A DNA stretch of 64,000 bases from Capsaspora owczarzaki ATCC 30864 (Eukaryota > Opisthokonta > Filasterea). The notes under the pieces were generated by a model. The model did no database searches, was not told the DNA's origin, and saw nothing but the letters and a program-made list of their open reading frames with translations. The stretch spans positions 196,643 to 260,642 of the forward strand of contig NW_011887296.1 of the NCBI RefSeq assembly GCF_000151315.2. Direction: 5' to 3'. The first letter of the stretch is position 1; each line of letters opens with the position of its first letter. Positions 6,101-62,471 of the stretch are shown here, one piece after another. Position numbers and translations under genes: made by a program.

Positions 6101-6746
6101 GTTGGTTTGTTTGTTTGTTTGTTTGTTGGTTTGTTTGTTTGTTTGTTTGTTTGTTTGTTTGTTTGTTTGTTTGTTTGTTTGTTTGTTTGTTTGTTTGTTT
6201 GTTTGTTTGTTTGTTTGTTTGTTTGTTTGTTTGTTTGTTTGTTTGTTTGTTTGTTTGTTTGTTTGTTTGTTTGTTTGTTTGTTTGTTTGTTTGTTCTTTT
6301 GATACAGCTGGATCCGTCGATTGTTGAGACTGGCGGCAAAGTCACTTCCTCGATTGTCGAGACTGGGGGCAAAGTGACCTCTGCGATTGGTATGAGTCAT
6401 TGCCTTCGAGCTTTTGCAAACTTGTGCATGCGGAAGGAAACTTACCATGTGTGATGCGTCGATGCTCGCTATAGGCGGCGCCTTCGGGTCGTTCACCAAG
6501 AGCGTGTCAGATGCGCTCAAGGAGAAGCCACACGACCCTACCTCTGATCACGCCGCCGTGGAACCGACGGCGTCAGAGCAAGCAGCGCACGCCGTCAAGC
6601 ACGCAGGAGCGCAGCTCTCCACTGCTGTCGGGAGTGCGTACCGGGGAATGCTGAGTTTTTGGTCTTCTGGCTCCTCGGCTGCTCCTGCAGCACCACCCGC
6701 CACGAAAGCAGACGATGCAAGTGCTGTTCCCACCTCTACGCCATGA
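3195..6746 (+). CDS. AVL9: AVL9 homologue (late secretory pathway, DENN-related)
   Basis: I can join 16 exons with consistent phase: 3195-3251, 3359-3707, 3807-3958, 4045-4116, 4186-4275, 4358-4421, 4484-4563, 4631-4700, 4772-4986, 5072-5209, 5294-5420, 5499-5618, 5705-5825, 5940-6006, 6308-6389 and 6475-6746, giving about 691 residues. The start MATVISVMLVSFHHTHGPQ followed by VEFAYPAMP matches the AVL9 opening (VVGFHHKKGCQVEFSYPP). Further matches are LACFRQQD, TRNTIQKSV, FKHRLLMLYKALLLERK, GCVFLPYLSLLQ and WEGSDGWIRAQF. AVL9 proteins act in exit from the Golgi toward the plasma membrane and belong to the tripartite DENN group. Residues coded by exon 2 add a long Ser/Ala-rich insert absent from animals. 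Exon 15 carries a tandem 11-residue duplication (SIVETGGKVTS). Intron 14 is filled by a TTTG repeat. Confidence 0.93.
6062..6295 (+). repeat. (TTTG)n microsatellite in AVL9 intron 14
   Basis: About 234 bp of TTTG units, interrupted only by two GG variants near 6103 and 6127. It fills most of the 301-bp intron 6007-6307. Long open frames on both strands through it are artefacts of a 4-bp repeat without stops. Confidence 0.98.
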
Positions 6747-45756: not shown

Positions 45757-46095
45757 ATGGTCGAAGTGAGAATCATTCGCTCCGTTCGCTCGGTGCTCGC
45801 GAAGCTAATGGAAGTCACTCGCGGCACAACTTCTGAGGACGCTAGACAAGACCTAAGCCAAGCTATCGCTTTCCTGAGGGGCTTTGAAATTGAGGTATCA
45901 GACGAGATACCAGACCCGAATACCACTAGATTGTTCCAGGATTACGTCGTCCTAGAACTTCTTAAGTTGCTTCGGCACAAGAGGCAATTTCTCTGCTTTG
46001 TACTGCCAAAGCCCTACCAGTCAAGGCGGGATCTGGCCGCTGAATACTTGGAAAGGTTTCAACAGAAGCGCATTGCTGCAGATATGCAGGACTAG
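45757..46095 (+). CDS. Array small protein, unit U0 (divergent)
   Basis: 112 residues, intron-free, starting MVEVRIIRSVRSVLAKLMEV. I do not recognise the family. It shares with all other units a core read as IPDPN(T/A)TRLFQDYVV, ELLK.LRHK, LC.VLP and QSRRDLAA..LE.FQ.KRIAA, mostly helical and without signal peptide, Cys pairs or membrane segment, so probably cytosolic or nuclear. U0 and U10 are the most divergent members and flank the homogenised block. A pogo-type element is inserted in its stop codon: the target TA followed by the element's first G reads TAG, so the protein end is kept. The original 3'UTR now lies beyond 49235. Confidence 0.75.
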   Translation: MVEVRIIRSVRSVLAKLMEVTRGTTSEDARQDLSQAIAFLRGFEIEVSDEIPDPNTTRLFQDYVVLELLKLLRHKRQFLCFVLPKPYQSRRDLAAEYLERFQQKRIAADMQD

Positions 46096-49000
46096 AGAGG
46101 GCCTCCCTAAAAAGACTCAGTCCAAAAACCATTGCGCCCCCACCCTAAAAAGACTCAAACCCGATTATCTCGGCTTGTATTCCTCCCACCCCGCCGCCGT
46201 CTTCGAATATCAATGAACACTCATTCCAGCTACAAGGAAGACATGGTCAGACGGGCGCAGGAGCAACTTGAGGTCGGCCTCGCCCAGATTGCGACCGCGT
46301 CTCCCTTCCGCCAGAGGCTCCTGACGAAGGCCACCGCCCTCAAACTATACTATTTTGACCCGTTCCTATCCACTACGGATGTCGGCGGAGCTCCGGGAGC
46401 CTCCGCCGAGCGAATCTGGACGACCCGCCAAATCGCCCATGCGCTGGGTCGATCGCAGTCCATGATCGCCCGCTGCATCAAGGCCCACGCCAACCTCGCT
46501 CCTGACATTCCTGGAATGACCTTAGATGAGTTGGCTGACGTTCTGCGCGAGGATCCCATCCAGGGACAAGGCTACGTGTTCACCGTCCCCGAGGAGCAAG
46601 AGCTCGTCGAGTTTGTCAAGCGGTGCTGCTTAGGAGCTGTCTCTCTGAGCAAAACGGAATTCACTCGATATGTGCTTGCAGCCTCGAAGGTGCCGAGGCC
46701 GGACGGCGTGGAAAGACGTCAATTTGAGCACGACAAAGTTTCCGACAAGTGGGTCAATGATTTTGTCGCCCGTCACAGCTCACAGATTGGCTGGCGCAGT
46801 AGCAGCGTGTTGGAAACACTTCGAGTGGCTGCTTTGAGTGAAAAGAAGCTCGGCAGTTTGTTCGCGCTACTGGCGGAGTACAGCAATCTTTACCCGACTC
46901 TTTTCGCTACGCCGGCCAATATTTTCAACATGGACGAGTCGGATTGCTCTGTGGGTCGTAAAAAGAAGCGTGCCCTGGCTGCTGTTGGTGTCAAGCGTGT
47001 CAGTCGGCGATCTGGCCGAACCATTACGATGGGACCGCATGTTACTGGTCTGTTTACTGTTTGTGCTGATGGCACCGCTCCTGTTGCGCCCCACTTCATT
47101 GTCGCGCATCCACGGCCCACTCTACCTCACAGGTGCACCGAGGGCCTGGACGAGGAGTTGATTCACCAGTCCGAGTCCGGCTTCATCAACGAGGAAATCT
47201 TCGACAAGTGGTTTCGAGATTTCGTCGAGGTCGTCAAGGAGCGAGCTACCACCACCCCCGTTCTATTGGTGATGGATGGCAGCTCGTGTCACAAGTTCAC
47301 TGTCGGGTTGATTGACCTCGCGGTGAGCAACAACATCCTGGTTGCGATCCTTCCATCGCACACGTCGACTCACTTGCAGCCGCTCGACGTCACCGTCTTT
47401 GCCTGGTACAAGAACTTGCTCGAGACTCACGTGCAGTCGATTTTGGATGAAGACTCGCCACTCATCGACGTGAACATCAAGCTTCACGGGGCCATTCGGG
47501 CGTGGAACGAAATTGACGACCGATCCAACTTGATCCGATCTGGGTTTCGCCAAACTGGTATCTATCCGCTGGACACGGAAAAGCACAAGACCCTAGCGTT
47601 GCCTTCCGTCGCTGACGTTGCCGTGTCTACGACCCCCTCGCTGCACATTCCCGAGCCACCCCCGACCCCGGATGCTCGGTATTCGGCGTTGTACCGTGTC
47701 CGTCAGATTGCCGATGCCGCCCTGGTAACCATTGGTTGCACTCCGAGAGCTCTACAGCAAAAGAGGGTGCACGATGCAGCGGTAGCTGATTTGCGTCGAA
47801 ATCTCGAGGTCGAACTTTCGGTGCAAGAAGTCCTTCGGGCCCCACCCAGGCCCCTGCGGTCCAGGAGCATTGGCAACAGCTCCATGCGCGTTTCTATGAA
47901 CTCGACCGCTCGATCCCCGCTTACGCCGGAGAATAGGGATGCCCAGCTTAAGCGGCAGGAGTTGCAAGAGAAGAGGAAGCAGCTCGAACCTCTGAAAGAA
48001 GAGTACAATCGGCAACGGCCCATCTTCCTCCGCACGCTAAAAGACCTTGACTCACGCATCTTGACACTTGCGGAGACAATTCTTGCTCTGGAGACTCAGC
48101 TGGCTGCTCTGGGAGAAGAGGTCGAGCAGGACATCGAATCGGCAACTGCCGCGGAGACCCGAAACAAGCTAGCTGCTGCTCGCCTGCAGCATACCAAGCT
48201 CGTACGTGACCGCGCGACATTTTTCAAGAACCGTCTCAAGCGACCCACTCTTCTAAGTCTTGAGCCAGCGGCGACCGCTTCCACACCTCTCGTTCCTCGG
48301 CGCGTCAGCAGGCCTAGGCCCATTCTCGCTTCGCAATCGATGGCGAACGACACTGTCGACTTGGATCAATCAGCCAGCGAGGAGGAAAGCGAGTCTGACG
48401 ACGATGACGACGAGAATCAAGCGTCGTCCGAAATGGCTTCCGCTGCCATCGGCCACAACGACAACCAGGAGGACCCCAGCGATGTCCAGCGTCAACCTCA
48501 AGCCGCCCGCAAGCGTCGCCAGGAAGATGACGATGAAAACGTCGCGCCCGTCTTCACCACGGTCACATCAGACTCGAGCGATGTTGTTCAAGTCGATTAT
48601 CAGCTGAGCTCCACCGAACTCCAAGAAATCCGACGCTATCGCATGCCAACACGTAGTACTACGAAGCAAGATGGACATAATGTCAAATTGGCGCGTGTAG
48701 ACCTCCAACCTGCGTCGTCAAGGCCGGCGCTCAGCGACCTGACAAACCTTTCTCGAAGCAACACGCTACCACTGTAATTTTCCGTGTTTTGTGTTCAATT
48801 CTATGTGCATCCCATGTCATTCAATGTAGTTATGTGTTTTTTCCGGTCAAAAAGGGTGAAATCATGTCTAGGCAGGGGAAGATTGGACCATGCCCGTCCG
48901 GCGCGGGCGGTCTGGCACCTGCCGGGTTCTGTGGTCACATACAGTAACCGTCGCACCAACTGCAATACATAGATACCAGTTGGTATTACATGTCCCAGTT

Positions 49001-49233
49001 GAAGATGGGCCGACAGATCCTCTACACGGGCGACACGGGACTGGCAAAGTCAGTTTCTCCCTAAAACGACTCAGCCCTAATGCACGCCCAGCCAAATCGA
49101 AGCGAAAATTTTCCCCTCCGATTCGCACCAAAATTACCAAATCAACTATATAATTTATGCTCTTTCCAATGATATAGGTGGCAGGGCGAGGAAATGAACA
49201 GGGGGGACTGAGTCTTTTTAGGGAGGCCCTCTC
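46095..49233 (+). mobile_element. pogo/Tigger-type DNA transposon, element 1
   Basis: 3,139 bp bounded by perfect 29-bp terminal inverted repeats beginning GAGAGGGCCTCCCTAAAAAG and flanked by TA target duplications (46093-46094 and 49234-49235), as in the Tc1/mariner/pogo group. Subterminal copies of CCTAAAAAGACTCA occur at 46143 and, slightly altered and in the same orientation, at 49061; these could be extra transposase binding sites. One intact transposase gene is inside. It looks whole and recent. Confidence 0.93.
46213..48777 (+). CDS. DDE_1 (pogo/Tigger) transposase of element 1
   Basis: 854 residues from the ATG at 46213 without interruption. The N terminus has helix-turn-helix-like segments (WTTRQIAHALGRSQSMIARC; ALSEKKLGSLFAL region). 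The DDE domain has all three acidic residues in family contexts: FNMDESDCSVG, LLVMDGSSCHKF and HLQPLDVTVFAWYKN, followed by GFRQTGIYPLD. The C-terminal third is unusual in length, with a coiled coil (KRQELQEKRKQLEPLKEEY) and an acidic stretch (EEESESDDDDDENQ) before a short end. It should be catalytically competent by motif. Confidence 0.93.
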   Translation: MNTHSSYKEDMVRRAQEQLEVGLAQIATASPFRQRLLTKATALKLYYFDPFLSTTDVGGAPGASAERIWTTRQIAHALGRSQSMIARCIKAHANLAPDIPGMTLDELADVLREDPIQGQGYVFTVPEEQELVEFVKRCCLGAVSLSKTEFTRYVLAASKVPRPDGVERRQFEHDKVSDKWVNDFVARHSSQIGWRSSSVLETLRVAALSEKKLGSLFALLAEYSNLYPTLFATPANIFNMDESDCSVGRKKKRALAAVGVKRVSRRSGRTITMGPHVTGLFTVCADGTAPVAPHFIVAHPRPTLPHRCTEGLDEELIHQSESGFINEEIFDKWFRDFVEVVKERATTTPVLLVMDGSSCHKFTVGLIDLAVSNNILVAILPSHTSTHLQPLDVTVFAWYKNLLETHVQSILDEDSPLIDVNIKLHGAIRAWNEIDDRSNLIRSGFRQTGIYPLDTEKHKTLALPSVADVAVSTTPSLHIPEPPPTPDARYSALYRVRQIADAALVTIGCTPRALQQKRVHDAAVADLRRNLEVELSVQEVLRAPPRPLRSRSIGNSSMRVSMNSTARSPLTPENRDAQLKRQELQEKRKQLEPLKEEYNRQRPIFLRTLKDLDSRILTLAETILALETQLAALGEEVEQDIESATAAETRNKLAAARLQHTKLVRDRATFFKNRLKRPTLLSLEPAATASTPLVPRRVSRPRPILASQSMANDTVDLDQSASEEESESDDDDDENQASSEMASAAIGHNDNQEDPSDVQRQPQAARKRRQEDDDENVAPVFTTVTSDSSDVVQVDYQLSSTELQEIRRYRMPTRSTTKQDGHNVKLARVDLQPASSRPALSDLTNLSRSNTLPL

Positions 49234-49401
49234 TAATCCGGAAAACTTTCGTCCATTTGTCGCTTGCTTGCGCTTTTTGTGCTTTCGTTTTTGGCCTGTC
49301 GCTTGCACATTGTCAATAAATCAGAGCTAAACTTGACACGGGAAGCGCGGAAGGAGGGTTGTGCTATATTTGGACAACTGCAGTCCTCTTTGTTTTCAGC
49401 A

Positions 49402-49743
49402 ATGCTTCATGTGAGAGAGATTCGCACCGTAGACTCGGTGATCGATAAGCTAATGGGGGTCACTCTCGGCACAGTTTCCGCAGATGCTACTGACGACCTG
49501 AGCTTTGCTCTGGCTTTCCTGAGGGGTGTTCCAATCGAGGCACCAGCCGAGATTCCCGACCCAAATGCCACTAGATTGTTCCAGGATTATGTTGTTCAAG
49601 AACTTCTCAAGGTGCTTCGGCACAAGACACGCATTTTTTTCTGCCTCGTCCTTCCAAACCAATCTCAGTCACGGCGGGATCTGGCCGCTTACCACTTGGA
49701 GCAGTTTCAACAGAAGCGCATTGCCGCAGATATGCAAGGCTAA
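49402..49743 (+). CDS. Array small protein, unit U1 (type A)
   Basis: 113 residues starting MLHVREIRTVDSVIDKLMGV and ending AADMQG. First A of the trimer array. Upstream lies GTGCTATATTTGGACAACTG and TTTTCAG directly before CAATG. Function unknown. Confidence 0.75.
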   Translation: MLHVREIRTVDSVIDKLMGVTLGTVSADATDDLSFALAFLRGVPIEAPAEIPDPNATRLFQDYVVQELLKVLRHKTRIFFCLVLPNQSQSRRDLAAYHLEQFQQKRIAADMQG

Positions 49744-49900
49744 TCCTTACATTTTTCGCTTGCTTGCTCTTTGTGTGCTTTCGTTTTTGGCCTGTCGCTT
49801 GCATTGTCAATAAATCAGAGCCAAACCTGACACGGGAAGGAAGCAGAAAATGGTCGCTAAATTTGGAGCGCCGAGAGTTTTGTAGTCTTGTTTTTCAGCA

Positions 49901-50242
49901 ATGCCTCAATATTTAAAGATGCGCACCGTGGCCTCGGTGATCGGGAAGCTAATGGAGGTCACTTGCGGCACAGTTTCCGCAGATGCTACTGACGACCTGA
50001 GCTTTGCTCTGGCTTTCCTGTGGGGTGTTCCAATCGAGGCACCAGCCGAGATTCCCGACCCAAATGCCACTAGATTGTTCCAGGATTATGTTGTTCAAGA
50101 ACTTCTCAAGGTGCTTCGGCACAAGACACGCATTTTTCTCTGCCTCGTCCTTCCAAACCCAGATCAGTCACGGCGGGATCTGGCCGCTTACTACTTGGAG
50201 CAGTTTCAACGGAAGCGAATTGCAGCAGATATGCAGGACTAA
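49901..50242 (+). CDS. Array small protein, unit U2 (type B)
   Basis: 113 residues starting MPQYLKMRTVASVIGKLMEV; type B is marked by TCGTVS, LWGVPIEAP and an end AADMQD. Its upstream region uses GCTAAATTTGGAGCG in place of the type A GCTATATTTGGAC. Function unknown. Confidence 0.75.
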   Translation: MPQYLKMRTVASVIGKLMEVTCGTVSADATDDLSFALAFLWGVPIEAPAEIPDPNATRLFQDYVVQELLKVLRHKTRIFLCLVLPNPDQSRRDLAAYYLEQFQRKRIAADMQD

Positions 50243-50418
50243 TGTTATTTTTTTGGGTTTTTTTCTCGCTTGCTTGCTCTTTGTGTGCTTTCGCTTTTTG
50301 GCCTGTCGCTTGCACATTGTCAATAAATCAGAGCCAAACGTGACACGGGAAGCACTGAAGCAGAATGGGTCGCTAAATTTGGAGCGCCGAGAGTTTTTGT
50401 AGTCTTGTTTTTTCAGCA

Positions 50419-50760
50419 ATGCTTCATGTCGTAAAGATTCGCACCGTGGACTCGGTGATCGCGAAGCTATTGAAGGTCACTCTCGGCACAGTTTCCGCAG
50501 ATGCTACTGACGACCTGAGCTTTGCTCTGGCTTTCCTGAGGGGTGTTCCAATCGAGGCACCAGCCGAGATTCCCGACCCAAATGCCACTAGATTGTTCCA
50601 AGATTATGTGGTTCAAGAACTTCTCAAGGTGCTTCGGCACAAGACACGCATTTTTCTCTGCCTCGTCCTTCCAAACCAATCTCAGTCAAGGCGAGATCTG
50701 GCCGCTGACCACTTGGAGCAGTTTCAACGGAAGCGCATTGCCGCAGATATGCAGGGCTAA
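50419..50760 (+). CDS. Array small protein, unit U3 (type C)
   Basis: 113 residues starting MLHVVKIRTVDSVIAKLLKV; type C is marked by AADHLEQFQRKRIAA. The 3' flank has AATAAA at 50828-50833, 68 bp after the stop. Function unknown. Confidence 0.75.
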   Translation: MLHVVKIRTVDSVIAKLLKVTLGTVSADATDDLSFALAFLRGVPIEAPAEIPDPNATRLFQDYVVQELLKVLRHKTRIFLCLVLPNQSQSRRDLAADHLEQFQRKRIAADMQG

Positions 50761-50827
50761 TCCTTACATTTTTCGCTTGCTTGCTCGTTGTGTGCTTTCG
50801 TTACTGGCCTGTCGCTTGCACACTGTC

Positions 50828-50833
50828 AATAAA
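50828..50833 (+). terminator. AATAAA poly(A) signal of unit U3 (array example)
   Basis: One AATAAA follows each unit at a similar distance (for example within GTCAATAAATCAGAGCC in the other types). Here it ends 44 bp before the TATA-like box of the next unit, so neighbouring transcription units almost touch. Confidence 0.6.
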
Positions 50834-50877
50834 CCAGAGCTAAACTTGACACGGGAAGCGCGGAAGGAGGGTTGTGC

Positions 50878-50886
50878 TATATTTGG
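50878..50886 (+). promoter_or_regulatory. TATA-like box of unit U4 (array example)
   Basis: TATATTTGG lies 37 bp upstream of the U4 start codon. The equivalent in types B and C is TAAATTTGG, and in U0 TATTTGG; the position relative to ATG is conserved, which supports a core promoter role. All array units also carry or nearly carry TTTTCAG four bases before ATG, which could be a 3' splice site or part of an initiator. Confidence 0.5.
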
Positions 50887-50914
50887 ACAACTGCAGTCCT
50901 CTTTGTTTTCAGCA

Positions 50915-51256
50915 ATGCTTCATGTGAGAGAGATTCGCACCGTAGACTCGGTGATCGATAAGCTAATGGGGGTCACTCTCGGCACAGTTTCCGCAGATGC
51001 TACTGACGACCTGAGCTTTGCTCTGGCTTTCCTGAGGGGTGTTCCAATCGAGGCACCAGCCGAGATTCCCGACCCAAATGCCACTAGATTGTTCCAGGAT
51101 TATGTTGTTCAAGAACTTCTCAAGGTGCTTCGGCACAAGACACGCATTTTTTTCTGCCTCGTCCTTCCAAACCAATCTCAGTCACGGCGGGATCTGGCCG
51201 CTTACCACTTGGAGCAGTTTCAACAGAAGCGCATTGCCGCAGATATGCAAGGCTAA
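50915..51256 (+). CDS. Array small protein, unit U4 (type A)
   Basis: Same protein as U1 (113 residues) with DNA that I read as identical, including upstream and downstream spacers. Second A of the array. Confidence 0.75.
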   Translation: MLHVREIRTVDSVIDKLMGVTLGTVSADATDDLSFALAFLRGVPIEAPAEIPDPNATRLFQDYVVQELLKVLRHKTRIFFCLVLPNQSQSRRDLAAYHLEQFQQKRIAADMQG

Positions 51257-51585
51257 TCCTTACATTTTTCGCTTGCTTGCTCTTTGTGTGCTTTCGTTTT
51301 TGGCCTGTCGCTTGCATTGTCAATAAATCAGAGCCAAACCTGACACGGGAAGGAAGCAGAAAATGGTCGCTAAATTTGGAGCGCCGAGAGTTTTGTAGTC
51401 TTGTTTTTCAGCAATGCCTCAATATTTAAAGATGCGCACCGTGGCCTCGGTGATCGGGAAGCTAATGGAGGTCACTTGCGGCACAGTTTCCGCAGATGCT
51501 ACTGACGACCTGAGCTTTGCTCTGGCTTTCCTGTGGGGTGTTCCAATCGAGGCACCAGCCGAGATTCCCGACCCAAATGCCACTA

Positions 51586-54500
51586 GAGTGACGGTCTCTA
51601 AATCCGGATGGCGCCTCCTACGGCCTGTGTGCAAGCTTCCGCTCGCGCCTTGCCCCCCTGTGTCAATCAGTGCATCAATACCAATGTGTGGGTGAAGTAG
51701 CGGGGCGCTTTGGCCCGAACTCATCGCTAGGCACGCGAAAAACGAAAAAATGACGAAAAAGCGGATCCAGCCAAAATCCAATGCATCCGGATTAAAATGC
51801 AGGTGTTTTTGGGGCCGCCACGAGGTTGATCGCAAACGCGCCCTGCGGGCTCTGTGACATCGCCAGCCCGCCTTCCGCGAGCCAAATGCAGTCTACACAC
51901 GATAGGTGTTATCGTGACCAAGCGGGCGCGGAGGTGCGGTCGACACGAGCGTGGGAATGGAGGATACGCTCGAACACCACTTTTGCAGCCAATCCATCGT
52001 GAGCTCCCGTCCGGCTGCTAATCGCTCTTCGAGCTAGATTGATGGAGTATATGACATATCAAACCATTTTATTCAATAAACAATACAAAAATCAGGCAGA
52101 GTTTACATTTAGTGCGACGAACGGCCGTCGGTGAGCATTTGTTGCTTGTTTGCTCAGGCGAATCACAAGAGATGGTGGATCTTCAACACGAGGACGCTTG
52201 TCAAGGTGCTCAGGCGTCGGGGCAGCATTAGAGGCTAGTTGAGTAGCGGAACTGCGCGTTGGGAGGCGACTTTGGCGCATGCGGGCCACTAGTTCATCGG
52301 TAAACTGCACTCCGTCGTATGAACCGTCGCTGTCGGACCTTTCAGAGAATGTTCGTTTTGCTGGTGTGATTGCGATCGTTTGCTGGGTCGTCAGGATGGG
52401 GAGCGACGGCGAGGGCAGGCTCTCAGTCGGATTTGCAGCAACAGGCTCTGCAGCCTGCGACAAAACTTGCTCTGATTGACGCAAAGCAATCTGTCGGGCA
52501 CGAGCGGGAGTTTGAGTACGAGCAACAGGGGCTCGAGTACGTTTCGGAGTTGAAGCTTGAAGTGCGGCCAGCTCGTTGCGAGCTTGGGCGAGCTCTGCTT
52601 CGCGCAAAGGGTCTTGCAACTCGGCGGCGGCGGCGAGTTCAGTCTGCAGTGCACTGATTCTCCGTGTCAGAGCAAATTTTGCGTGCTCGGCGGCGGCCTC
52701 GGCAGCCATGGTACGTGACCGGTTCATCAATCGAGTCATCTCCTGCGCAATCTTCGTTTGTTCTTGCAGTTTTTTTGCGTTCGCCCGCTGCATTGCCTCC
52801 TCGGTAATCGCCAGATACGCGCCTTTCGTATGCTTGTGCTTGTAGGTAGTGCTGGTTTGAATTGCGAGGGAATAGGAAGCACGCTGCACGATATCATCGA
52901 CGGTGATGGGGACGCTCAGCAACTCGCGAAGTTTGCCAACGTGACTGAGTGCATCTCGTTCTAGCGCCTCGGAACTGGGACCAGCTGCAAGTTCAACATC
53001 GGCATCATCGAGGATTAGGCGAGCCTTCTTGAATATCAAACGCACCGGCGAAAGCGAGGGAGCAGGGTCTGGGACGCTGGCATACCCGCTCTCCACCGAG
53101 GGCAAAGGCGGTGTGGGGTGGGATATCTCGGCACTCTCGACGACGGGCAGCGTTGGAGTCGACAGGAGATTGGGGACGCTCGCCGTGTCTGTGGGCGTTG
53201 CAGAAACTGGCTGGACGGGCGCAGCCAAGGCCTCTTTTCCTATGAGTGATTCAGTTCTGCTCGCATGGTCCGGGCTCACCACCCACTCGCAGTATGCATT
53301 CTTGTCCAAAGGCCAGATTCCAGTCTTTTTAAATCCAGCAGTGATGACGGCTGTATTTTGCGAAATCTTGTACCACGCATTCAGAGCGCAATGCACTCGC
53401 ATTTGGTCGTCCGAGGCAAAGACGCCAGCTGCAATCGCGCTCGCATACTCTGCTTGTAACTGACGCTTGAAGTAGCCAAACACAGTGCGATCGAGTGGCT
53501 GAGTCTCAGTGCTCGTGTGCGCGGGCAAGACAAGAATCTGAATTTGATCGTAGAAAAACTCGGCCACCAAATCGTGCTCGAGGCTGTGCGTGGATGAGCC
53601 ATCCATGATCAAAAGCAGCGGGCCTGACGGGTGTCTTTCTCGCATGCAGCTTCGCCACTCGCGCAGATAAGTTTTGAACAAGTCTGAGGTCATGTACCCC
53701 TTCTCGGTCGTTGCGGTAGAGCAGGCGTCAATGGGAACGTGTTGGCAAACCGTCGCGACGTTCGTACCCTTCGTAAAAATCAGCATGGGAGGGAGCGGCG
53801 CAGTTCCATCGGCACACACCAAGAAGACGCCGGTGATGTGCCGTCCGAGGCTGTTGTTGTGCCCACCGCCAACGAGCGCGACACGACCCCACGATGCCCC
53901 TAATACAGTCGATCCCTTGACGCGAGAAGAAATCTCGCTCTCGTCAAAGTTGCTGACGCGGCTCGGCTCGACGGTAAGGAGAGGATGTTGATCGTAGGCC
54001 TGTTTGAGTTGAGTCGGGAGAGTCCCGAGATTGTCGGGTGTCAGCGCTGCAGCCCGGCACACTTCCAGCACACGGCCCTTTCGAAGCCTGACGCGTCCCT
54101 TCGCTCGCTTCAAAAAGGTGGCCCACCAGGACCGGCTAGGCGTGTCTTGGACAAACGCCCGCCTTGGTGAGCCGTCGAAAGAAGTTGTTTCAGAACACGG
54201 TTTCAAGTACTTGGCGGCCTGCGCTTTCGTCAGACAGCATGACGCGCGAGCAAACGCTTCCAATAAATTGATAATTGCATCAACTTCGTGATCGGTAAAG
54301 ATGGGTGGTCGGCCTTTCGTGCGGGTGGACCGCGCCAGCTCGATCACTTCATCCAGCGTTCCAGACTGAATCAGTTCGCGGTGGCCCGCGTGGAGTTGAG
54401 CCCAGTCACTGACAGTCGACTTTCCGCACTTGAAGCCAGCCTGCCCCAGCCGCGCGGCGACCTGTTCACATGTCCATTGAAATGGTGTTGTCGTACAACC

Positions 54501-54780
54501 AGTCGAGAGGGTCAGCGGACCCGGGGTTAGCAGCTTGAGGGCGATGGCGATGGCGATCGGTCGTCGGTTTTTTCCAGCCGCCTCGGCGAGTCGCCCAAAC
54601 CACCCCGCGACGATCGCAGCCACCTCAACAAGACACTCCATGTGATAACCAACTCGATTTATGTACAATGGTGAAAGAGCCGAGGCGAAGCGATGAATAG
54701 ACTGCGAGAAAAACGCCTCATCCGGATTAAAATGCAACTCTCGAGGTCTGTAATGCGTCCGGATTTAGAGACAGTTACTC
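51586..54780 (-). mobile_element. pogo/Tigger-type DNA transposon, element 2
   Basis: 3,195 bp with imperfect terminal inverted repeats (about 22 of 25 match), left GAGTGACGGTCTCTAAATCC, right (reversed) GAGTAACTGTCTCTAAATCC, and TA target duplications (51584-51585, 54781-54782). The empty site is readable in sister units as CACTAGATTG. Its transposase gene is intact on the minus strand. Subterminal TCCGGATTAAAATGCA occurs near both ends in the same orientation (51786 and 54721). It inserted after the trimer was amplified, since the other B units lack it. Confidence 0.94.
52092..54641 (-). CDS. DDE_1 (pogo/Tigger) transposase of element 2
   Basis: 849 residues from the ATG at 54641 (MECLVEVAAIVAGWFG). 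N-terminal helix-turn-helix-like region (WTCEQVAARLGQAGFKCGKS), then a DDE domain with SNFDESEIS, LLLIMDGSSTHSL and TQPLDRTVFGYFKRQ, followed by GFKKTGIWPLD. The C-terminal third has a coiled coil (ANAKKLQEQTKIAQEMTRLM) and a basic patch. It shares the layout of the element 1 enzyme but is only distantly similar, so the two elements are different families of one group. Confidence 0.93.
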   Translation of the reverse strand: MECLVEVAAIVAGWFGRLAEAAGKNRRPIAIAIALKLLTPGPLTLSTGCTTTPFQWTCEQVAARLGQAGFKCGKSTVSDWAQLHAGHRELIQSGTLDEVIELARSTRTKGRPPIFTDHEVDAIINLLEAFARASCCLTKAQAAKYLKPCSETTSFDGSPRRAFVQDTPSRSWWATFLKRAKGRVRLRKGRVLEVCRAAALTPDNLGTLPTQLKQAYDQHPLLTVEPSRVSNFDESEISSRVKGSTVLGASWGRVALVGGGHNNSLGRHITGVFLVCADGTAPLPPMLIFTKGTNVATVCQHVPIDACSTATTEKGYMTSDLFKTYLREWRSCMRERHPSGPLLLIMDGSSTHSLEHDLVAEFFYDQIQILVLPAHTSTETQPLDRTVFGYFKRQLQAEYASAIAAGVFASDDQMRVHCALNAWYKISQNTAVITAGFKKTGIWPLDKNAYCEWVVSPDHASRTESLIGKEALAAPVQPVSATPTDTASVPNLLSTPTLPVVESAEISHPTPPLPSVESGYASVPDPAPSLSPVRLIFKKARLILDDADVELAAGPSSEALERDALSHVGKLRELLSVPITVDDIVQRASYSLAIQTSTTYKHKHTKGAYLAITEEAMQRANAKKLQEQTKIAQEMTRLMNRSRTMAAEAAAEHAKFALTRRISALQTELAAAAELQDPLREAELAQARNELAALQASTPKRTRAPVARTQTPARARQIALRQSEQVLSQAAEPVAANPTESLPSPSLPILTTQQTIAITPAKRTFSERSDSDGSYDGVQFTDELVARMRQSRLPTRSSATQLASNAAPTPEHLDKRPRVEDPPSLVIRLSKQATNAHRRPFVALNVNSA

Positions 54781-55128
54781 TAGATTGTTCCAGGATTATG
54801 TTGTTCAAGAACTTCTCAAGGTGCTTCGGCACAAGACACGCATTTTTCTCTGCCTCGTCCTTCCAAACCCAGATCAGTCACGGCGGGATCTGGCCGCTTA
54901 CTACTTGGAGCAGTTTCAACGGAAGCGAATTGCAGCAGATATGCAGGACTAATGTTATTTTTTTGGGTTTTTTTCTCGCTTGCTTGCTCTTTGTGTGCTT
55001 TCGCTTTTTGGCCTGTCGCTTGCACATTGTCAATAAATCAGAGCCAAACGTGACACGGGAAGCACTGAAGCAGAATGGGTCGCTAAATTTGGAGCGCCGA
55101 GAGTTTTTGTAGTCTTGTTTTTTCAGCA

Positions 55129-55470
55129 ATGCTTCATGTCGTAAAGATTCGCACCGTGGACTCGGTGATCGCGAAGCTATTGAAGGTCACTCTCGGCACA
55201 GTTTCCGCAGATGCTACTGACGACCTGAGCTTTGCTCTGGCTTTCCTGAGGGGTGTTCCAATCGAGGCACCAGCCGAGATTCCCGACCCAAATGCCACTA
55301 GATTGTTCCAAGATTATGTGGTTCAAGAACTTCTCAAGGTGCTTCGGCACAAGACACGCATTTTTCTCTGCCTCGTCCTTCCAAACCAATCTCAGTCAAG
55401 GCGAGATCTGGCCGCTGACCACTTGGAGCAGTTTCAACGGAAGCGCATTGCCGCAGATATGCAGGGCTAA
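55129..55470 (+). CDS. Array small protein, unit U6 (type C)
   Basis: Same 113-residue protein as U3; DNA appears identical including spacers. Confidence 0.75.
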   Translation: MLHVVKIRTVDSVIAKLLKVTLGTVSADATDDLSFALAFLRGVPIEAPAEIPDPNATRLFQDYVVQELLKVLRHKTRIFLCLVLPNQSQSRRDLAADHLEQFQRKRIAADMQG

Positions 55471-55624
55471 TCCTTACATTTTTCGCTTGCTTGCTCGTTG
55501 TGTGCTTTCGTTACTGGCCTGTCGCTTGCACACTGTCAATAAACCAGAGCTAAACTTGACACGGGAAGCGCGGAAGGAGGGTTGTGCTATATTTGGACAA
55601 CTGCAGTCCTCTTTGTTTTCAGCA

Positions 55625-55966
55625 ATGCTTCATGTGAGAGAGATTCGCACCGTAGACTCGGTGATCGATAAGCTAATGGGGGTCACTCTCGGCACAGTTT
55701 CCGCAGATGCTACTGACGACCTGAGCTTTGCTCTGGCTTTCCTGAGGGGTGTTCCAATCGAGGCACCAGCCGAGATTCCCGACCCAAATGCCACTAGATT
55801 GTTCCAGGATTATGTTGTTCAAGAACTTCTCAAGGTGCTTCGGCACAAGACACGCATTTTTTTCTGCCTCGTCCTTCCAAACCAATCTCAGTCACGGCGG
55901 GATCTGGCCGCTTACCACTTGGAGCAGTTTCAACAGAAGCGCATTGCCGCAGATATGCAAGGCTAA
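55625..55966 (+). CDS. Array small protein, unit U7 (type A)
   Basis: Same 113-residue protein as U1 and U4; third A of the array. Confidence 0.75.
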   Translation: MLHVREIRTVDSVIDKLMGVTLGTVSADATDDLSFALAFLRGVPIEAPAEIPDPNATRLFQDYVVQELLKVLRHKTRIFFCLVLPNQSQSRRDLAAYHLEQFQQKRIAADMQG

Positions 55967-56123
55967 TCCTTACATTTTTCGCTTGCTTGCTCTTTGTGTG
56001 CTTTCGTTTTTGGCCTGTCGCTTGCATTGTCAATAAATCAGAGCCAAACCTGACACGGGAAGGAAGCAGAAAATGGTCGCTAAATTTGGAGCGCCGAGAG
56101 TTTTGTAGTCTTGTTTTTCAGCA

Positions 56124-56465
56124 ATGCCTCAATATTTAAAGATGCGCACCGTGGCCTCGGTGATCGGGAAGCTAATGGAGGTCACTTGCGGCACAGTTTC
56201 CGCAGATGCTACTGACGACCTGAGCTTTGCTCTGGCTTTCCTGTGGGGTGTTCCAATCGAGGCACCAGCCGAGATTCCCGACCCAAATGCCACTAGATTG
56301 TTCCAAGATTATGTGGTTCAAGAACTTCTCAAGGTGCTTCGGCACAAGACACGCATTTTTCTCTGCCTCGTCCTTCCAAACCCAGATCAGTCACGGCGGG
56401 ATCTGGCCGCTTACTACTTGGAGCAGTTTCAACGGAAGCGAATTGCAGCAGATATGCAGGACTAA
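56124..56465 (+). CDS. Array small protein, unit U8 (type B, mosaic)
   Basis: Type B protein, but the stretch coding LFQDYVVQ reads TTCCAAGATTATGTGGTTC, the type C version, whereas U2 and the right half of U5 have CCAGGATTATGTTG. A short conversion tract from a C unit explains it. Confidence 0.75.
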   Translation: MPQYLKMRTVASVIGKLMEVTCGTVSADATDDLSFALAFLWGVPIEAPAEIPDPNATRLFQDYVVQELLKVLRHKTRIFLCLVLPNPDQSRRDLAAYYLEQFQRKRIAADMQD

Positions 56466-56641
56466 TGTTATTTTTTTGGGTTTTTTTCTCGCTTGCTTGC
56501 TCTTTGTGTGCTTTCGCTTTTTGGCCTGTCGCTTGCACATTGTCAATAAATCAGAGCCAAACGTGACACGGGAAGCACTGAAGCAGAATGGGTCGCTAAA
56601 TTTGGAGCGCCGAGAGTTTTTGTAGTCTTGTTTTTTCAGCA

Positions 56642-56983
56642 ATGCTTCATGTCGTAAAGATTCGCACCGTGGACTCGGTGATCGCGAAGCTATTGAAGGT
56701 CACTCTCGGCACAGTTTCCGCAGATGCTACTGACGACCTGAGCTTTGCTCTGGCTTTCCTGAGGGGTGTTCCAATCGAGGCACCAGCCGAGATTCCCGAC
56801 CCAAATGCCACTAGATTGTTCCAAGATTATGTGGTTCAAGAACTTCTCAAGGTGCTTCGGCACAAGACACGCATTTTTCTCTGCCTCGTCCTTCCAAACC
56901 AATCTCAGTCAAGGCGAGATCTGGCCGCTGACCACTTGGAGCAGTTTCAACAGAAGCGCATTGCCGCAGATATGCAAGGCTAA
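56642..56983 (+). CDS. Array small protein, unit U9 (type C, mosaic 3' end)
   Basis: Type C up to AADHLEQFQ, then CAGAAGCGCATTGCC and ATGCAAGGCTAA as in type A, so the end of the gene and its 3' flank derive from an A unit. The protein changes R to Q (FQQKRIAADMQG). Confidence 0.75.
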   Translation: MLHVVKIRTVDSVIAKLLKVTLGTVSADATDDLSFALAFLRGVPIEAPAEIPDPNATRLFQDYVVQELLKVLRHKTRIFLCLVLPNQSQSRRDLAADHLEQFQQKRIAADMQG

Positions 56984-57147
56984 TCCTTACATTTTTCGCT
57001 TGCTTGCTCTTTGTGTGCTTTCGTTTTTGGCCTGTCGCTTGCACATTGTCAATAAATCAGAGCCAACCCTGACACGGGAAGCGCGGAAGCAGAAAATGGT
57101 CGCTAAATTTGGAGCGCCGAGAGTTTTTGTAGTTTTGTTTTTCAGCA

Positions 57148-57492
57148 ATGTTGCCAAAAGTTATTATGATTCGCTCCGTTAGCTCGGTGATCGCGAAGCT
57201 AATGGAAGTCACTCGCGGCACAGTTTCCGACGCCGCTAGACACGACTTGAACGAAGCTCTCGCTTACCTGAATGGCTTTGAAATTGAAGTATCAGACGAG
57301 ATACCAGACCCCAATACAACTAGATTGTTCCAGGATTATGTTGTTCAAGAACTTCTCAAGGTGCTTCGGCACAAGACGCAATTTCTCTGCTTTGTACTTT
57401 CAAATCCCTACCAGATAAGGCGAGATCTGGCCGCTTGCTCCTTGGAAAGGTTTCAACAGAAGCGCATTGCAGCTGACGAGCGCTCTTGTTAG
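57148..57492 (+). CDS. Array small protein, unit U10 (divergent)
   Basis: 114 residues starting MLPKVIMIRSVSSVIAKLME. It groups with U0 (FEIEVSDEIPDPNTTRLFQ, FLCFVL) and has a different end (IAADERSC). Its upstream spacer is of type B/C, so the crossover between the homogenised block and this older copy lies near 57130-57170. Confidence 0.72.
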   Translation: MLPKVIMIRSVSSVIAKLMEVTRGTVSDAARHDLNEALAYLNGFEIEVSDEIPDPNTTRLFQDYVVQELLKVLRHKTQFLCFVLSNPYQIRRDLAACSLERFQQKRIAADERSC

Positions 57493-57900
57493 AGAAGCAC
57501 TCTCCAAAAGCATACCCTTGCTTGCGCATTCGCACACACAGCCAAGCTTGCATGGTTGCTCACAACTTGGCTGATTGAATTTGTTTTTTGTTTTTTGTTC
57601 GCTTTTTTCATTGACTGTGTTCATGGCTATCGCTTTCTCCAGTTCTGCAAAACACTCTGAAAGTTTTGAAAACGCCGCAAGGACGCAACGGCAGAACTCC
57701 GAAAACCATGCTCCAAGCGATCGGGATGCACTGATGGCTGTATTTTGGTGTTGGCTTGTGAACGTATCGACATTCAATTTGGAAATACAAAGGGCACTCT
57801 TTACTTTCCTCAATTTGCCGATGTCGAGCTCAAGCAGTTCCACGCCGAGTTCTCCGCTTCTCGTAATTTTAAATCTTGGCTCTATCTGTTTTTCTTTTTT

Positions 57901-57942
<42 letters not shown>

Positions 57943-58439
57943 ACGCTCCATTCCGCTTCCTCTCGCTTATTCGCTCATCCTCATCATCTGATTCGACTTT
58001 GATCCACGGAGACGAGAAACAGCCCCCTTTGGGAGCTGTGCTCCTGTGGGTACTTGTCTGCTCTATTTTTTTCTCAACCGTTTTTCTCAACCGTTTTTCT
58101 CAACCGTTTTGCATCGTACAACTTTCCAATGCCACCGCACACACCGCACCACACACACGCAGACACACACAGACACACACATACACACATGTACACAAAC
58201 ACCTACACACGCCGCATCATCTCGCACAAGCACTCGATTTTTCGCAAAGTGATGTCATCATACACAGCATAGCCAAAAAACAAAGGAAAAAAAAAAACGG
58301 GCGTGTGGATTTAAATGACCCCGAAGCGAGCTCAGCTACTACTTTCTAATCACCCCAGTGGTTGTGCCAAACAAGTCGATAGAACTGGCGGCTGGTGATC
58401 TCATTCTGATTTTTTATTGTTATTTTTTTTGGTCGGTAG
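57493..58439. other. Spacer with simple repeats, 5' part of next gene not resolved
   Basis: Contains a CT run (57899-57940), three ACCGTTTTTCTCA-like repeats (58075-58110) and a CA-rich tract (58136-58205). An open stretch coding VLACERIDIQFGNTKGTLYF at about 57751-57880 could be an exon of the next gene, but I could not join it. First exons of the membrane protein should lie here. Confidence 0.45.
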
Positions 58440-59789
58440 GGCGGAACGATCCAAAACAACTCTCCAGCCGCTACTGTCGGCGGTGGGACGACCCTCATCG
58501 TTCCCGGCGGCCCCGGCGTCCTCGGCGTCCCCAATGCCAATGTCCACGGGGGTTACTCCACGATAGTTGACCTTCCCAAAATGGATTCCGCCCTTTTTAG
58601 TAAGCGCAAGCACTGCATTGACATGTTCTGGTCCACTCGCTAAGCCCACAGTTTTCCTCTCATTCTGCCAGATCGGGAAGAGGACGTTGCTGCCGCTCTT
58701 TTTCAGCAGGCCGATGACCAATTTGATCGGCTTACCACTGACAGCACCTTGATCTGCCTTACATCAGCCTTTACTGCAGCCGCTGTGTCCGAGCTGTTTT
58801 GCCTGCATTCTGTCTACGAAGGGGAAATTGGATGGTTTTCTGGAGCGTTGACCATTTTCCTGGCCACTTTTGCGCTACTTGTCTTCTACAGCGAAATGCA
58901 GACGGCCGCTGGCGCAACTCATTTCTACTGGTTTGGGTTTGTGGGTGTATGGAGCTACATTCGTTTTGCCGAGGGTACTTGGTCGCGAATGATCTTTGCA
59001 GCAAATTGTCAAGTCAAGCGACTCTGGCTTGGCGCTACATTCGTCGTTATGACAGTTTTCCCGCTGGCCTACTTTGCGTATCAGGACGACAAATATCGTG
59101 GAATGGGTCTTGCTGGAGGACTTATGTCTGCTTTCCTTGTGTATCTACTCTTCATTTTTAAAAGTGGGATTGTGGAAAGGCCGCAGGGGGACCAAGATGC
59201 CGAGCTGAGTAAGTCGGATTTTCGGAATGCGCACACAGTGTCACCAGCTTGACTGACTGGCACTGCAAACTTTGAACACGTAGATCAGCAAACCACTTTT
59301 CTTCGTGAGAGATTGGGAGCATACCTCGCCCAGAATCTCCGAGAGGCTGCTGAAGAGTTCCCCAAGAAGGTTGTGACGCTCCTTCTGGTTACTGACATCA
59401 TAATCTTCCTTGGATCGGCTGCCCTCGTGGAAAAAGTTGGCGGCAAGCTACCAAACCGCGAAATTACCGTCTCAGCAACCGCAGTGGCATGGTTTTTTAC
59501 ATCTGTGCAAGCGATCGTGAACATACACCGATGCAACGAGTTGAGCGCCGCTGGCACCGGCAGCACAGTTCCAGCGATTCGTCCCTTGCATGGATTGGTG
59601 GCTGTAGGCATCAGCATGATAAGCCTTGTCGTGGTCACTGCGGTCGTGTGGTCAGAAAAGCTACCGGACAACGCATCGATTTGGGGCATTACATTTGCCG
59701 TCAACTTCGGCTTCATTGCCATCAAGCTGTACCTGCTTCACAAGGGCAATTTCCCTATGACGTGGTTCACTTGCTGCTGTTCGAAGTGA
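58440..59789 (+). CDS. Multi-pass membrane protein, 5' end unresolved
   Basis: Exons 58440-58599, 58672-59208 and 59284-59789 join in phase, giving about 400 residues. A Gly/Pro-rich start (GGTIQNNSPAATVGGG) is followed by about nine hydrophobic segments: LTSAFTAAAVSELFCL, ALTIFLATFALLVFY, FYWFGFVGVWSYIRF, TFVVMTVFPLAYFAY, LAGGLMSAFLVYLLFIF, then after a polar loop VVTLLLVTDIIIFLGSAALV, ATAVAWFFTSVQAIV, ISMISLVVVTAVVW and ITFAVNFGFIAIKLYLL. It ends in a Cys cluster (FTCCCSK) that could be lipidated. The upstream acceptor (TCGGTAG) shows the gene begins earlier, unless MDSALF at 58580 is the start. Family not recognised. Confidence 0.65.
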
Positions 59790-61078
59790 ATTTGTTTGTG
59801 CTGAATTTGTTTATGCTGAGTTTGTTTGTGCTGGACCTCTCCGCACATGCTGGTGCACTTCCAACTGTTTTATTTTTCCCAATCCGATGATAATACGATG
59901 ACCACGTTGTTTTGCTTTTGATTTTATGACAAACAGCAACGCAGCAAATAGTGAACGAATTATTGTTCGAATCATTGTTTGCAGGAAAGCCAAGAAAATG
60001 AAGAGAGAACGTTTGTTAATAACAGAGCCGTCCCCAACCAAAATCACCGTTTAATCTCCCCAAAGGAACAAGAAGAACGCAACTTGCAAACCAAACGTCA
60101 CGAATACGACGCCGAACACACATCTTGCTCGTGAGTCATCAATTTTCACTCACTCTATTTTTTTTGTCGACCGATGTTCAACATCCGTTGGGAGCTGCTC
60201 GACTCGGCTCTGCTTCACGCGTGCGTTCTCGAAGAATAGCACCTGAATGTTCTCGTGTTGCATACTGCGCAATGAGGGCGTCGAGCACGTTTGCTTGCTG
60301 GCATTGGTTCTTAAGTCGACCGGCTCAGCTTTTTTTGTTTTTGCCGCTCAGTGTTTTTTGCCCGTTTATTCCTCCAGGAGCTGTGCCACTTGTCGCGCCA
60401 TACATCACTCCCACTACAGTAGAACACAAGCACACGCTTGAAGTCATGCTTTGTTGGAAGCAGGCACACAACGTACGGAGCACAGGCAAGTCGGTTCCCC
60501 CAGTTCTGCTTCCCTCCTCTTACTTGCGTTCTTTTTGGTTTTCCGTTTTTGGTCCCACAGGAACTTCTGTGTCGCCTAAATCGTGCTACCATGAACACGC
60601 GCGTGAACCATTGCTGGATACTCCTACTTCTACAACCTTGAACAACATGGGCATGAGCAAAAAGGGCGGCAAGTCAAGTCATCACTTTTCATCGCCTTTT
60701 TTTTTTGCATTGTCGGATGTCTGCCGCGACTCGGGATCTCCAATTGCAGTTTCGGCTTTCTTTTCAATCACAGTCTTGATGCAATAACCACGAGTTCACT
60801 CTCAAGCAAATAATTCGGACCAAACACGTTCCCAAGCCGAGCAAGTTTGGCCAGCATGCAGTCGAATCGTTCGTTCCCTTTGGAAATCTCTTGGGCGGCC
60901 TCTTTGTTTCGTGCTTTGTCGTCGTTTTCGCTCGTATTGTGACTTTTCTGTCTTTTTGTGTGCTTTCGCTTTTGGATAGTTGCCTGCACCTTTTCAATAA
61001 ACGAGAGCATGATGTGGGGGGGGGGATGGAGAGGGTTGTGCTACATTTGGACAACTGCAGTCCTCTTTGTTTCCAGCA
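59790..61078. other. Gap with a relic array 3' end
   Basis: No gene I can support; a 220-codon open frame at 60125-60787 lacks an ATG near its start and has no family match. At 60954-61010 TTGTGTGCTTTCGCTTTTGG and TTTTCAATAAACGAGAGC match the 3'UTR of array units, followed by the type A upstream block, so a further unit once preceded U11. Confidence 0.5.
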
Positions 61079-61420
61079 ATGCCTCATGTCGTAAAGATTC
61101 GCACCGTGGACTCGGTGATCGCGAAGCTTTTGAAGGTCACTCTCGGCACAGTTTCCGCAGATGCTACTGACGACCTGAGCTTTGCTCTGGCTTTCCTGAG
61201 GGGTGTTCCAATCGAGGCACCAGCCGAGATTCCCGACCCAAATGCCACCCGATTATTTCAAGACTACGTCGTTCAAGAACTTCTCAAGGTGCTTCGGCAC
61301 AAGACACGCATTTTTTTCTGCCTCGTCCTTCCAAACCAATCTCAGTCACGGCGAGATCTGGCCGCTTACCACTTGGAGCAGTTTCAACAGAAGCGCATTG
61401 CTGCAGATATGCAGGGCTAA
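61079..61420 (+). CDS. Array small protein, unit U11 (detached copy)
   Basis: 113 residues, MPHVVKIRTVDSVIAKLLKV, otherwise nearly identical in DNA to type C/A units. Between 61246 and 61271 eight successive codons for TRLFQDYV each differ from the array version by one silent base (ACC CGA TTA TTT CAA GA... against ACT AGA TTG TTC CAG GA...). The upstream block CATTTGGACAACTGCAG is of type A with TATA changed to TACA. Confidence 0.75.
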   Translation: MPHVVKIRTVDSVIAKLLKVTLGTVSADATDDLSFALAFLRGVPIEAPAEIPDPNATRLFQDYVVQELLKVLRHKTRIFFCLVLPNQSQSRRDLAAYHLEQFQQKRIAADMQG

Positions 61421-62471
61421 TTCGAACCAACTCGAACGCTCCAGAAAGCGCTATCTATTTAGCGATACATCGCTTCGCTCACTCGGCCGTCATGGCAAAC
61501 GATCGCTCACCCTAACTCGTGCACCCGCACGCACAGCCAAGCATGCATGATGTCGCTGCGCGACGCTTTGGCTGTGGGTTGTACTCTGTTTTTTGAATAG
61601 CGAACAGTGTTTTATTATTGTTATGTGTTTTTGAATTCGTTCAATGCCTGTTTTCATGACAGCGATCACCTTGCATGACTGCCGCCTTTTCCAATTGAAC
61701 CTGCAACACTCTGGGAACCTTGAACCACACTCCAGTTCAGCGAGCTGCAAGTGTGCTGCCGGGGCTGGACGCAACGGCGATAAGCAATGTGCATCATGTG
61801 GGGGCAAGCTTCCCGCAAGACGTTCTTTTTCGGAGCCTTTGAAGCACAGCCTGACCTCTTCACCCCCACCTCCCCGCACACCTCCTCGAGTTCACAAACC
61901 CTCTGTCTACCCTTTTGCAGCTTGCTCGCGGTGGCCGGAACGAGGCGAGACCGAAATGCGCAGGCAAAGTCCGACTTGATGACGCAAGCCAAGCCTCTGA
62001 GATTGACGTTGAGAAAGCTTGACGTTGATGACATCGTAGTTGACCAGCTTTGGCGTTTTATGTGTTTCGCAAGTCAAACACGAAGCCGAGGAACCTTCAA
62101 GCAATGACCCCACTTCAAGCAAAAGCGACCTTGAAGTGCTTAAAAATACCACAACAACAATTTAACAGCAGTTTGCTCCCGCAGGAGTAAAACTAATACA
62201 AACCCCCCTCCGAAAAAAAAAAAAAAAATAACAAAAATTCAAATACAATAGCGAATGCAAAATAGAAGCGATTAACCGTCTTTTTTAAACAGCACAACGC
62301 ACAAAACAGTGAATTCGATTGGGTGAAACACAAAAAAGGAGCATATTTTCACAAATGAGTTCAAAAACAAGCAGTTTGTTCTTGAACACCTTCTTCAGAG
62401 CCCAAGCCAAACAAGCAGTACTGGCCAATGCAGTACATTGTCAAAGACCAAGCCAAACAACCAGTGCATTT
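61421..62471. other. Spacer before the ceramide kinase gene
   Basis: About 1 kb without a supported gene. It has an A-run (62214-62228) and AT-rich stretches near 62150-62300. The ceramide kinase 3' end comes from the right. Confidence 0.55.

What the first reader, a model, noticed from the sequence alone, without database searches (positions are those of the whole stretch)
45757..61420. Undescribed tandem family of about 113-residue proteins, homogenised as an A-B-C trimer
At least 12 intron-free head-to-tail genes encode one unrecognised small protein. Nine form a trimer repeated three times with exactly 1,513-bp spacing, while the edges (U0, U10) are older and divergent. Divergent members keep the core (IPDPN.TRLFQDYVV, LRHK, RRDLAA) with many silent changes, which suggests selection on the protein. 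Multigene dosage or diversification (as in host-defence or symbiosis factors) is possible but is inference.
Basis: partly seen in the sequence, partly recalled or inferred. Interest (0 to 1): 0.88.

Follow-up and report, generated by a model that had tools for sequence, protein, structure and literature searches.

The report
Tandem array of orphan mini-genes
A single-celled organism, probably a close relative of animals, carries a row of near-identical tiny genes for a protein of unknown function; the row recently grew by copying a three-gene block, which is an ordinary way for gene families to expand.

Summary
The array is real. Twelve head-to-tail copies of a 112-114-residue ORF lie at 45757-61420; eleven are intact, one (C2) is split by a pogo-like transposon, and another transposon sits in the first copy's stop codon. 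Nine copies form a B-C-A block three times: blocks 1 and 2 show no difference, block 3 has 2 in its first 1,327 bases. Elsewhere the genome holds two intact copies and a decayed one 26-30 kb away, and two distant single-copy relatives (about 30% identity). Those relatives and dN/dS of 0.28-0.44 between subfamilies indicate a protein under purifying selection; among A, B and C themselves the test is inconclusive. Pfam, NCBIfam, PHROGs and PDB gave no credible relative; other eukaryotes could not be searched, and structure prediction was off. Copies are mosaics, as unequal crossing-over and gene conversion produce. Best reading: a lineage-restricted, probably intracellular, mainly helical protein encoded by self-contained mini-genes in a Capsaspora-like genome. 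The kind is known; the family looks undescribed. Defence or symbiosis roles have no support. Oddity: a splice-acceptor-like TTTYAG abuts the ATG in 12 of 14 copies, but not in the first intact copy of either cluster.

The parts
45757..46095 (+). U0, subfamily II, 112 aa, intact; transposon TE1 sits in the TA of its stop codon, which still reads TAG
46095..49233 (+). TE1: pogo-like DNA transposon, TA duplication at 46093-46094 and 49234-49235, 29-bp identical inverted ends, 881-aa ORF with DDE_1 at 46132-48777
49402..49743 (+). B1, subfamily I, 113 aa
49901..50242 (+). C1, subfamily I, 113 aa
50243..50418 (+). example of a spacer: AATAAA at -97, GCTAAATTTGGA at -47, TTTTTTCAGCA directly before the ATG of A1
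50419..50760 (+). A1, subfamily I, 113 aa
50915..51256 (+). B2, coding sequence identical to B1
51414..51585 (+). C2, 5' part of a copy split by TE2
51586..54780 (-). TE2: second pogo-like transposon, 3,195 bp, TA duplication, 881-aa ORF with DDE_1 at 52092-54737 on the - strand
54783..54952 (+). C2, 3' part
55129..55470 (+). A2, coding sequence identical to A1
55625..55966 (+). B3, coding sequence identical to B1
56124..56465 (+). C3, two silent differences from C1, both at sites where C1 and A1 differ
56642..56983 (+). A3, two differences from A1, both near its 3' end at sites where A1 and B1 differ; B-like tail
57148..57492 (+). U10, subfamily II, 114 aa; upstream region of the A/C type, coding part divergent
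61079..61420 (+). U11, subfamily I, 113 aa, isolated copy; coding part 96% identical to A1, outer flanks diverged

Best explanation
This is a young, lineage-restricted multigene family of compact mini-genes with an unbroken reading frame. Each copy in the window has a shared GCTRNATTTGGA element 38-47 nt before the ATG and an ORF of 112-114 codons; inside the array the spacers are 154-176 bp and hold an AATAAA signal for the preceding copy. The product is most likely a small, soluble, mainly helical intracellular protein. The array grew by duplication of a three-gene block through unequal crossing-over, and gene conversion keeps rewriting parts of copies, so that upstream regions and coding parts have separate histories. 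The family is kept by purifying selection; the extra near-identical copies most likely raise dose rather than diversify function. Shown here: the array, its coding status, mosaic copies, a decayed copy, no credible relative in the collections searched. Inferred: promoter role of the element, helical fold, intracellular location, dosage role.
For: Two distant single-copy relatives in the same frame, about 30% identical. In 9 of 12 bootstrapped pairs the upper 95% bound of omega is below 1: A1-U0 0.42, U11-V1 0.05, S15-S8 0.52. In a neutral simulation of 85 hits 831 of 5,000 runs stayed open, and the omega of the first 400 of these had a minimum of 0.40 and a 2.5% point of 0.49. Trimer blocks differ by 0 to 2 bases over the compared core. 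Mosaic: A1/U10 differ at 4 of 121 upstream sites but 81 of 336 coding sites; A1/U11 at 14 of 339 coding but 43 of 116 upstream sites (gapped columns and the bin across the ATG left out upstream). Long identical runs reached in under 1% of shuffles in 3 of 6 pairs. A decayed copy beside V2. Element and AATAAA positions.
Against: The three pairs among A, B and C are inconclusive, and type C looks near-neutral against A and B (omega 0.86 and 1.41). The observed A1-U0 omega of 0.42 lies just above the lowest simulated neutral value (0.40). Three of 6 pairs did not pass the 1% level in the run test. GC3 of the eight distinct array and V copies measured is 0.51-0.58, below four other ORFs of the window (0.59-0.64), so nothing points to high expression and dosage is unsupported. 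No transcript, peptide or structure was available.
Confidence: 0.7

Rival explanations
1. A passively expanding repeat: the unit multiplies because tandem DNA does, and most copies drift towards pseudogenes.
For: Type C near-neutral against A and B; a decayed copy beside V2; C2 broken by a transposon; recent identical blocks.
Against: U0, U10, V2, S8 and S15 keep open frames with omega 0.28-0.52 in the pairs where dS is not saturated; U11-V1 omega 0.05.
Confidence: 0.2
2. A diversifying family (defence, recognition or symbiosis factor) with selection for variety at the N-terminus.
For: 11 of 19 variable residues among A, B, C, U11 and V1 lie in residues 2-22; B-C omega 1.41.
Against: Bootstrap range 0.61-4.27; most of the array is identical rather than diverse; hydropathy scan shows no obvious export signal; against defence models only two weak partial hits, S15 to AbiEi (E 0.00097, 35 residues) and U10 to mad1 (E 0.054), not shared by the other members.
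Confidence: 0.07
3. The trimer copy number is partly an assembly artefact.
For: Blocks 1 and 2 are identical over 1,513 bp; the reads behind the assembly could not be inspected.
Against: Only block 2 carries TE2, block 3 has differences of its own, and the outer junctions differ. The A, B and C types cannot arise from misassembly.
Confidence: 0.1
4. Cargo or a domain of the pogo-like transposons.
For: Two such elements lie inside the array.
Against: Both have their own TA duplications and inverted ends that exclude the mini-genes; BLASTP of A1 against the two transposases finds nothing (best E 39 and 0.19); 11 and 7 near-identical 5' ends of these elements are spread over the genome, whereas 13 of 13 spacer hits lie in the two C5 clusters.
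Confidence: 0.02

Closest known systems
Tandem multigene families under concerted and birth-and-death evolution (general kind; recalled, not from a call)
   Same: Head-to-tail copies, block duplication, conversion-like tracts, decayed copies, retained reading frames.
   Different: The protein matches no family in the libraries searched; upstream regions and coding parts have been exchanged separately.
Pogo-like Cop transposon families of Capsaspora owczarzaki (PMC4007536; passages, one section and a table seen)
   Same: TE1 and TE2 are DDE_1 elements with TA duplications and near-identical copies, as that paper reports for its pogo-like families.
   Different: They are invaders of the array, not part of it; which Cop family each belongs to was not determined.
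Nematode-type operons with trans-splicing (recalled, not from a call)
   Same: Short spacers; AATAAA, then about 90 nt, then TTTTCAG next to the ATG.
   Different: Each copy also has its own upstream element, the isolated copy U11 has the site too, and no spliced leader was looked for or known.

Membership tests
Concerted tandem gene family | Head-to-tail copies, more alike inside the array than to outlying copies | tested here: met
   Trimer blocks 0-2 differences over the compared core; 65-69% protein identity of U0, U10, V2 to A1. Exception: outlying U11 and V1 are 96% identical to A1
Concerted tandem gene family | Mosaic tracts from conversion or unequal crossing-over | tested here: met
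   Upstream and coding divergence decoupled in U10 and U11; 3 of 6 pairs with identical runs reached in under 1% of shuffles, 3 of 6 not
Protein-coding gene family | Purifying selection between divergent copies | tested here: met
   9 of 12 pairs with upper omega bound below 1; the 3 pairs among A, B, C inconclusive
Protein-coding gene family | Transcript and peptide | not testable with these tools
   No expression data at hand
Known family in Pfam, NCBIfam, PHROGs, PADLOC or PDB | Significant profile or sequence match | tested here: not met
   Best: 1 of 10 members (S15) to AbiEi at E 0.00097 over 35 residues; every other hit has E above 0.05
Pogo-like transposon cargo | Mini-gene lies between transposon ends or resembles the transposase | tested here: not met
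Secreted effector or defence peptide | N-terminal signal sequence | tested here: inconclusive
   Hydropathy scan of four members finds no membrane-like stretch; N-terminal segment is internal in S8 and S15; no dedicated predictor at hand
Trans-spliced operon | Splice acceptor before downstream genes, none needed before the first | tested here: inconclusive
   TTTYAG-like site within 4 nt of the ATG in 12 of 14 copies, absent in U0 and V2; background 4 of 74 ORFs. Copies are not independent, and isolated U11 has the site
Trans-spliced operon | Common spliced leader on the mRNAs | not testable with these tools
   No RNA data at hand

The most novel reading that the evidence does not exclude
The array is transcribed as one polycistronic unit, and each downstream copy gets its 5' end by splicing at the TTTYAG that abuts its ATG, as in nematode operons. 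U0 and V2, the first intact copies of the two clusters, are the only copies without this site. It would be operon-style processing in a filasterean-like protist.
Probability: 0.05. Interest if true: 0.75.

Novelty: new member of a known kind. Interest (0 to 1): 0.36.

Why it matters
If expressed, it is a clear natural case of how a protist builds an orphan gene family: separate exchange of upstream regions and coding parts, block amplification and transposon damage, all within 16 kb. The oddly placed acceptor-like sites allow a simple RNA test for unusual leader processing. Otherwise it is a fairly ordinary lineage-specific expansion.

Tried and rejected
Protein family searches (Pfam, NCBIfam, PHROGs, PADLOC) and PDB sequence searches gave no credible relative. 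Viral contigs: 36 pattern stretches, none confirmed; prokaryote contigs: 147, none confirmed. No collection of eukaryote genomes other than the window's own was searched, so relatives in other protists are untested. The idea that GCTRNATTTGGA is family-specific was rejected: 66 hits genome-wide, 15 of them in the two family clusters. A conserved ORF in another frame or strand was rejected: each of the other five frames has stops in 15 of 15 copies tested. Transposon cargo was rejected. The tree groups U0, U10 and V2 (support 79 on protein, 82 on DNA) but places type C differently in the two trees with low support, as expected for mosaics. Paper searches that could have shown a description of the family gave listings in which no title or abstract opening mentions such an array; this does not prove that it is unpublished. 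Searches for Runx in Capsaspora gave listings only. Passages of PMC10232365 were seen but did not give the assembly size.

Full report
What is there. The window contains 12 head-to-tail copies of one small ORF. In order: U0 45757, B1 49402, C1 49901, A1 50419, B2 50915, C2 51414, A2 55129, B3 55625, C3 56124, A3 56642, U10 57148, U11 61079. Eleven are intact; C2 is split by a transposon (TE2). Nine copies form a B-C-A block three times. The 1,513-bp period is exact for 3 of 6 same-type intervals; the other three are longer by TE2 plus its 2-bp duplication. Blocks 1 and 2 show no difference in the 671 bases before TE2 and the 844 after it; block 3 differs from block 1 at 2 of its first 1,327 positions. 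The spacer in front of B1 differs from that in front of B2 at 22 of 170 positions.

Where it is. The window is part of contig C5 of a 27.46-Mb genome in 29 contigs. No tool names it. Pogo-like transposons with TA duplications (compare PMC4007536, of which passages, one section and a table were seen) and two Runt domains fit Capsaspora owczarzaki. The name is likely, not shown.

The rest of the family. Own-genome searches with three protein queries found, outside the window, two intact copies on the other strand (V1, V2 in L011; 26 kb beyond U11, 30 kb beyond U10), one decayed copy beside V2 with a stop and a change of frame, and two distant relatives on other contigs: S15 (L009) and S8 (L010). 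In one search these match A1 at 31% and 33% identity (E 1.6e-6 and 2.3e-5); they are 48% identical to each other. Seventeen columns are invariant in the 10 sequences aligned.

Coding status. Omega was computed for the 66 pairs of 12 distinct sequences and bootstrapped for 12 pairs. Between subfamily I (A, B, C, U11, V1) and subfamily II (U0, U10, V2) it is 0.28-0.44; for U11-V1 it is 0.05; for S15-S8 it is 0.52. The upper bound is below 1 in 9 of 12 bootstrapped pairs. The three pairs among A, B and C are inconclusive (0.44, 0.86, 1.41; upper bounds above 1). Many pairs with S8 or S15 have saturated silent sites and give no value. The other five frames hold stops in 15 of 15 copies. So the ORF encodes a protein that selection has kept over the longer term, while the youngest copies carry no clear signal and type C may be relaxed.

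How it evolves. Upstream regions and coding parts have separate histories. A1 and U10 differ at 4 of 121 upstream sites but at 81 of 336 coding sites; A1 and U11 differ at 14 of 339 coding sites but at 43 of 116 upstream sites (coding counts; gapped columns and the bin across the ATG are left out upstream). U11 shares the last 44 bases before the ATG with type B except for 2. Two silent sites distinguish C3 from C1, both at sites where A1 and C1 differ, and the two differences of A3 from A1 are at sites where A1 and B1 differ. Long identical runs were reached in under 1% of shuffles in 3 of 6 pairs, and in 3-7% in the other three. These are marks of gene conversion and unequal crossing-over. 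U11 keeps an AATAAA-bearing upstream flank that resembles the array spacer, and its 3' flank shares a 24-bp block (92% identical) with that of U10, which suggests a duplicated array end.

The units. Each of the 12 window copies has GCTRNATTTGGA 38-47 nt before the ATG, and 11 of 12 have AATAAA at -83 to -97, U0 being the exception. The element is not family-specific (66 hits genome-wide, 15 in the two clusters). A TTTYAG-like site lies within 4 nt of the ATG in 12 of 14 copies, against 4 of 74 ATG-started ORFs of at least 150 residues and 26 of 1,273 ATGs in sampled sequence (window 1-45000 and 62001-64000 plus four 10-kb stretches; shadow ORFs included). The two copies without it, U0 and V2, are the first intact copies of their clusters. 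Against a meaning in this: the copies are not independent, U0 and V2 share other features, and U11, which stands alone, has the site.

What it might do. Propensity and hydropathy scans of four members suggest mixed helix and strand-like stretches, helix at the C-terminal end, near-neutral charge and no membrane span; 'mainly helical' is my reading of a crude method. The N-terminal segment that varies most among A, B and C aligns to an internal segment of S15 and S8, so it is unlikely to be a targeting signal. My commitment is an intracellular protein whose extra copies add dose; fold, location and dose are inference, and GC3 gives no sign of strong expression.

The transposons. TE1 (46095-49233) sits in the TA of U0's stop codon, which still reads TAG. 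TE2 (51586-54780) splits C2. Both carry an 881-aa ORF with a DDE_1 match and TA duplications. Of the first 150 and 170 bases, 11 and 7 genome places match the whole query at 98-100% identity, these two included. TE2 lies only in block 2, so most simply it came after the block duplication.

Verdict. It is a new member of a known kind.

Noticed in passing
46093-49235: TE1, a pogo-like transposon, is inserted in the TA of a stop codon, so the gene keeps a stop (TAG) supplied partly by the transposon.
   Followed up: yes
33586-33835: Two tRNA-Asn (GTT) genes in a tandem duplication with a 177-bp period.
   Followed up: no
6062-6295: A TTTG tetranucleotide repeat of about 58 units, 98% matches.
   Followed up: no
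L011:2300-3700: Downstream of V1 lies an orphan GCTAAATTTGGA element with no family gene directly behind it, and a decayed family copy lies beside V2: probably remnants of a longer second array.
   Followed up: partly
45757 (U0) and L011:3022-3360 (V2): The first intact copies of the two clusters lack the splice-acceptor-like TTTYAG found before the ATG of the other 12 copies.
   Followed up: partly
57493-61078: The 3.6 kb between U10 and U11 holds ORFs of 167 and 158 residues without a Pfam match.
   Followed up: partly
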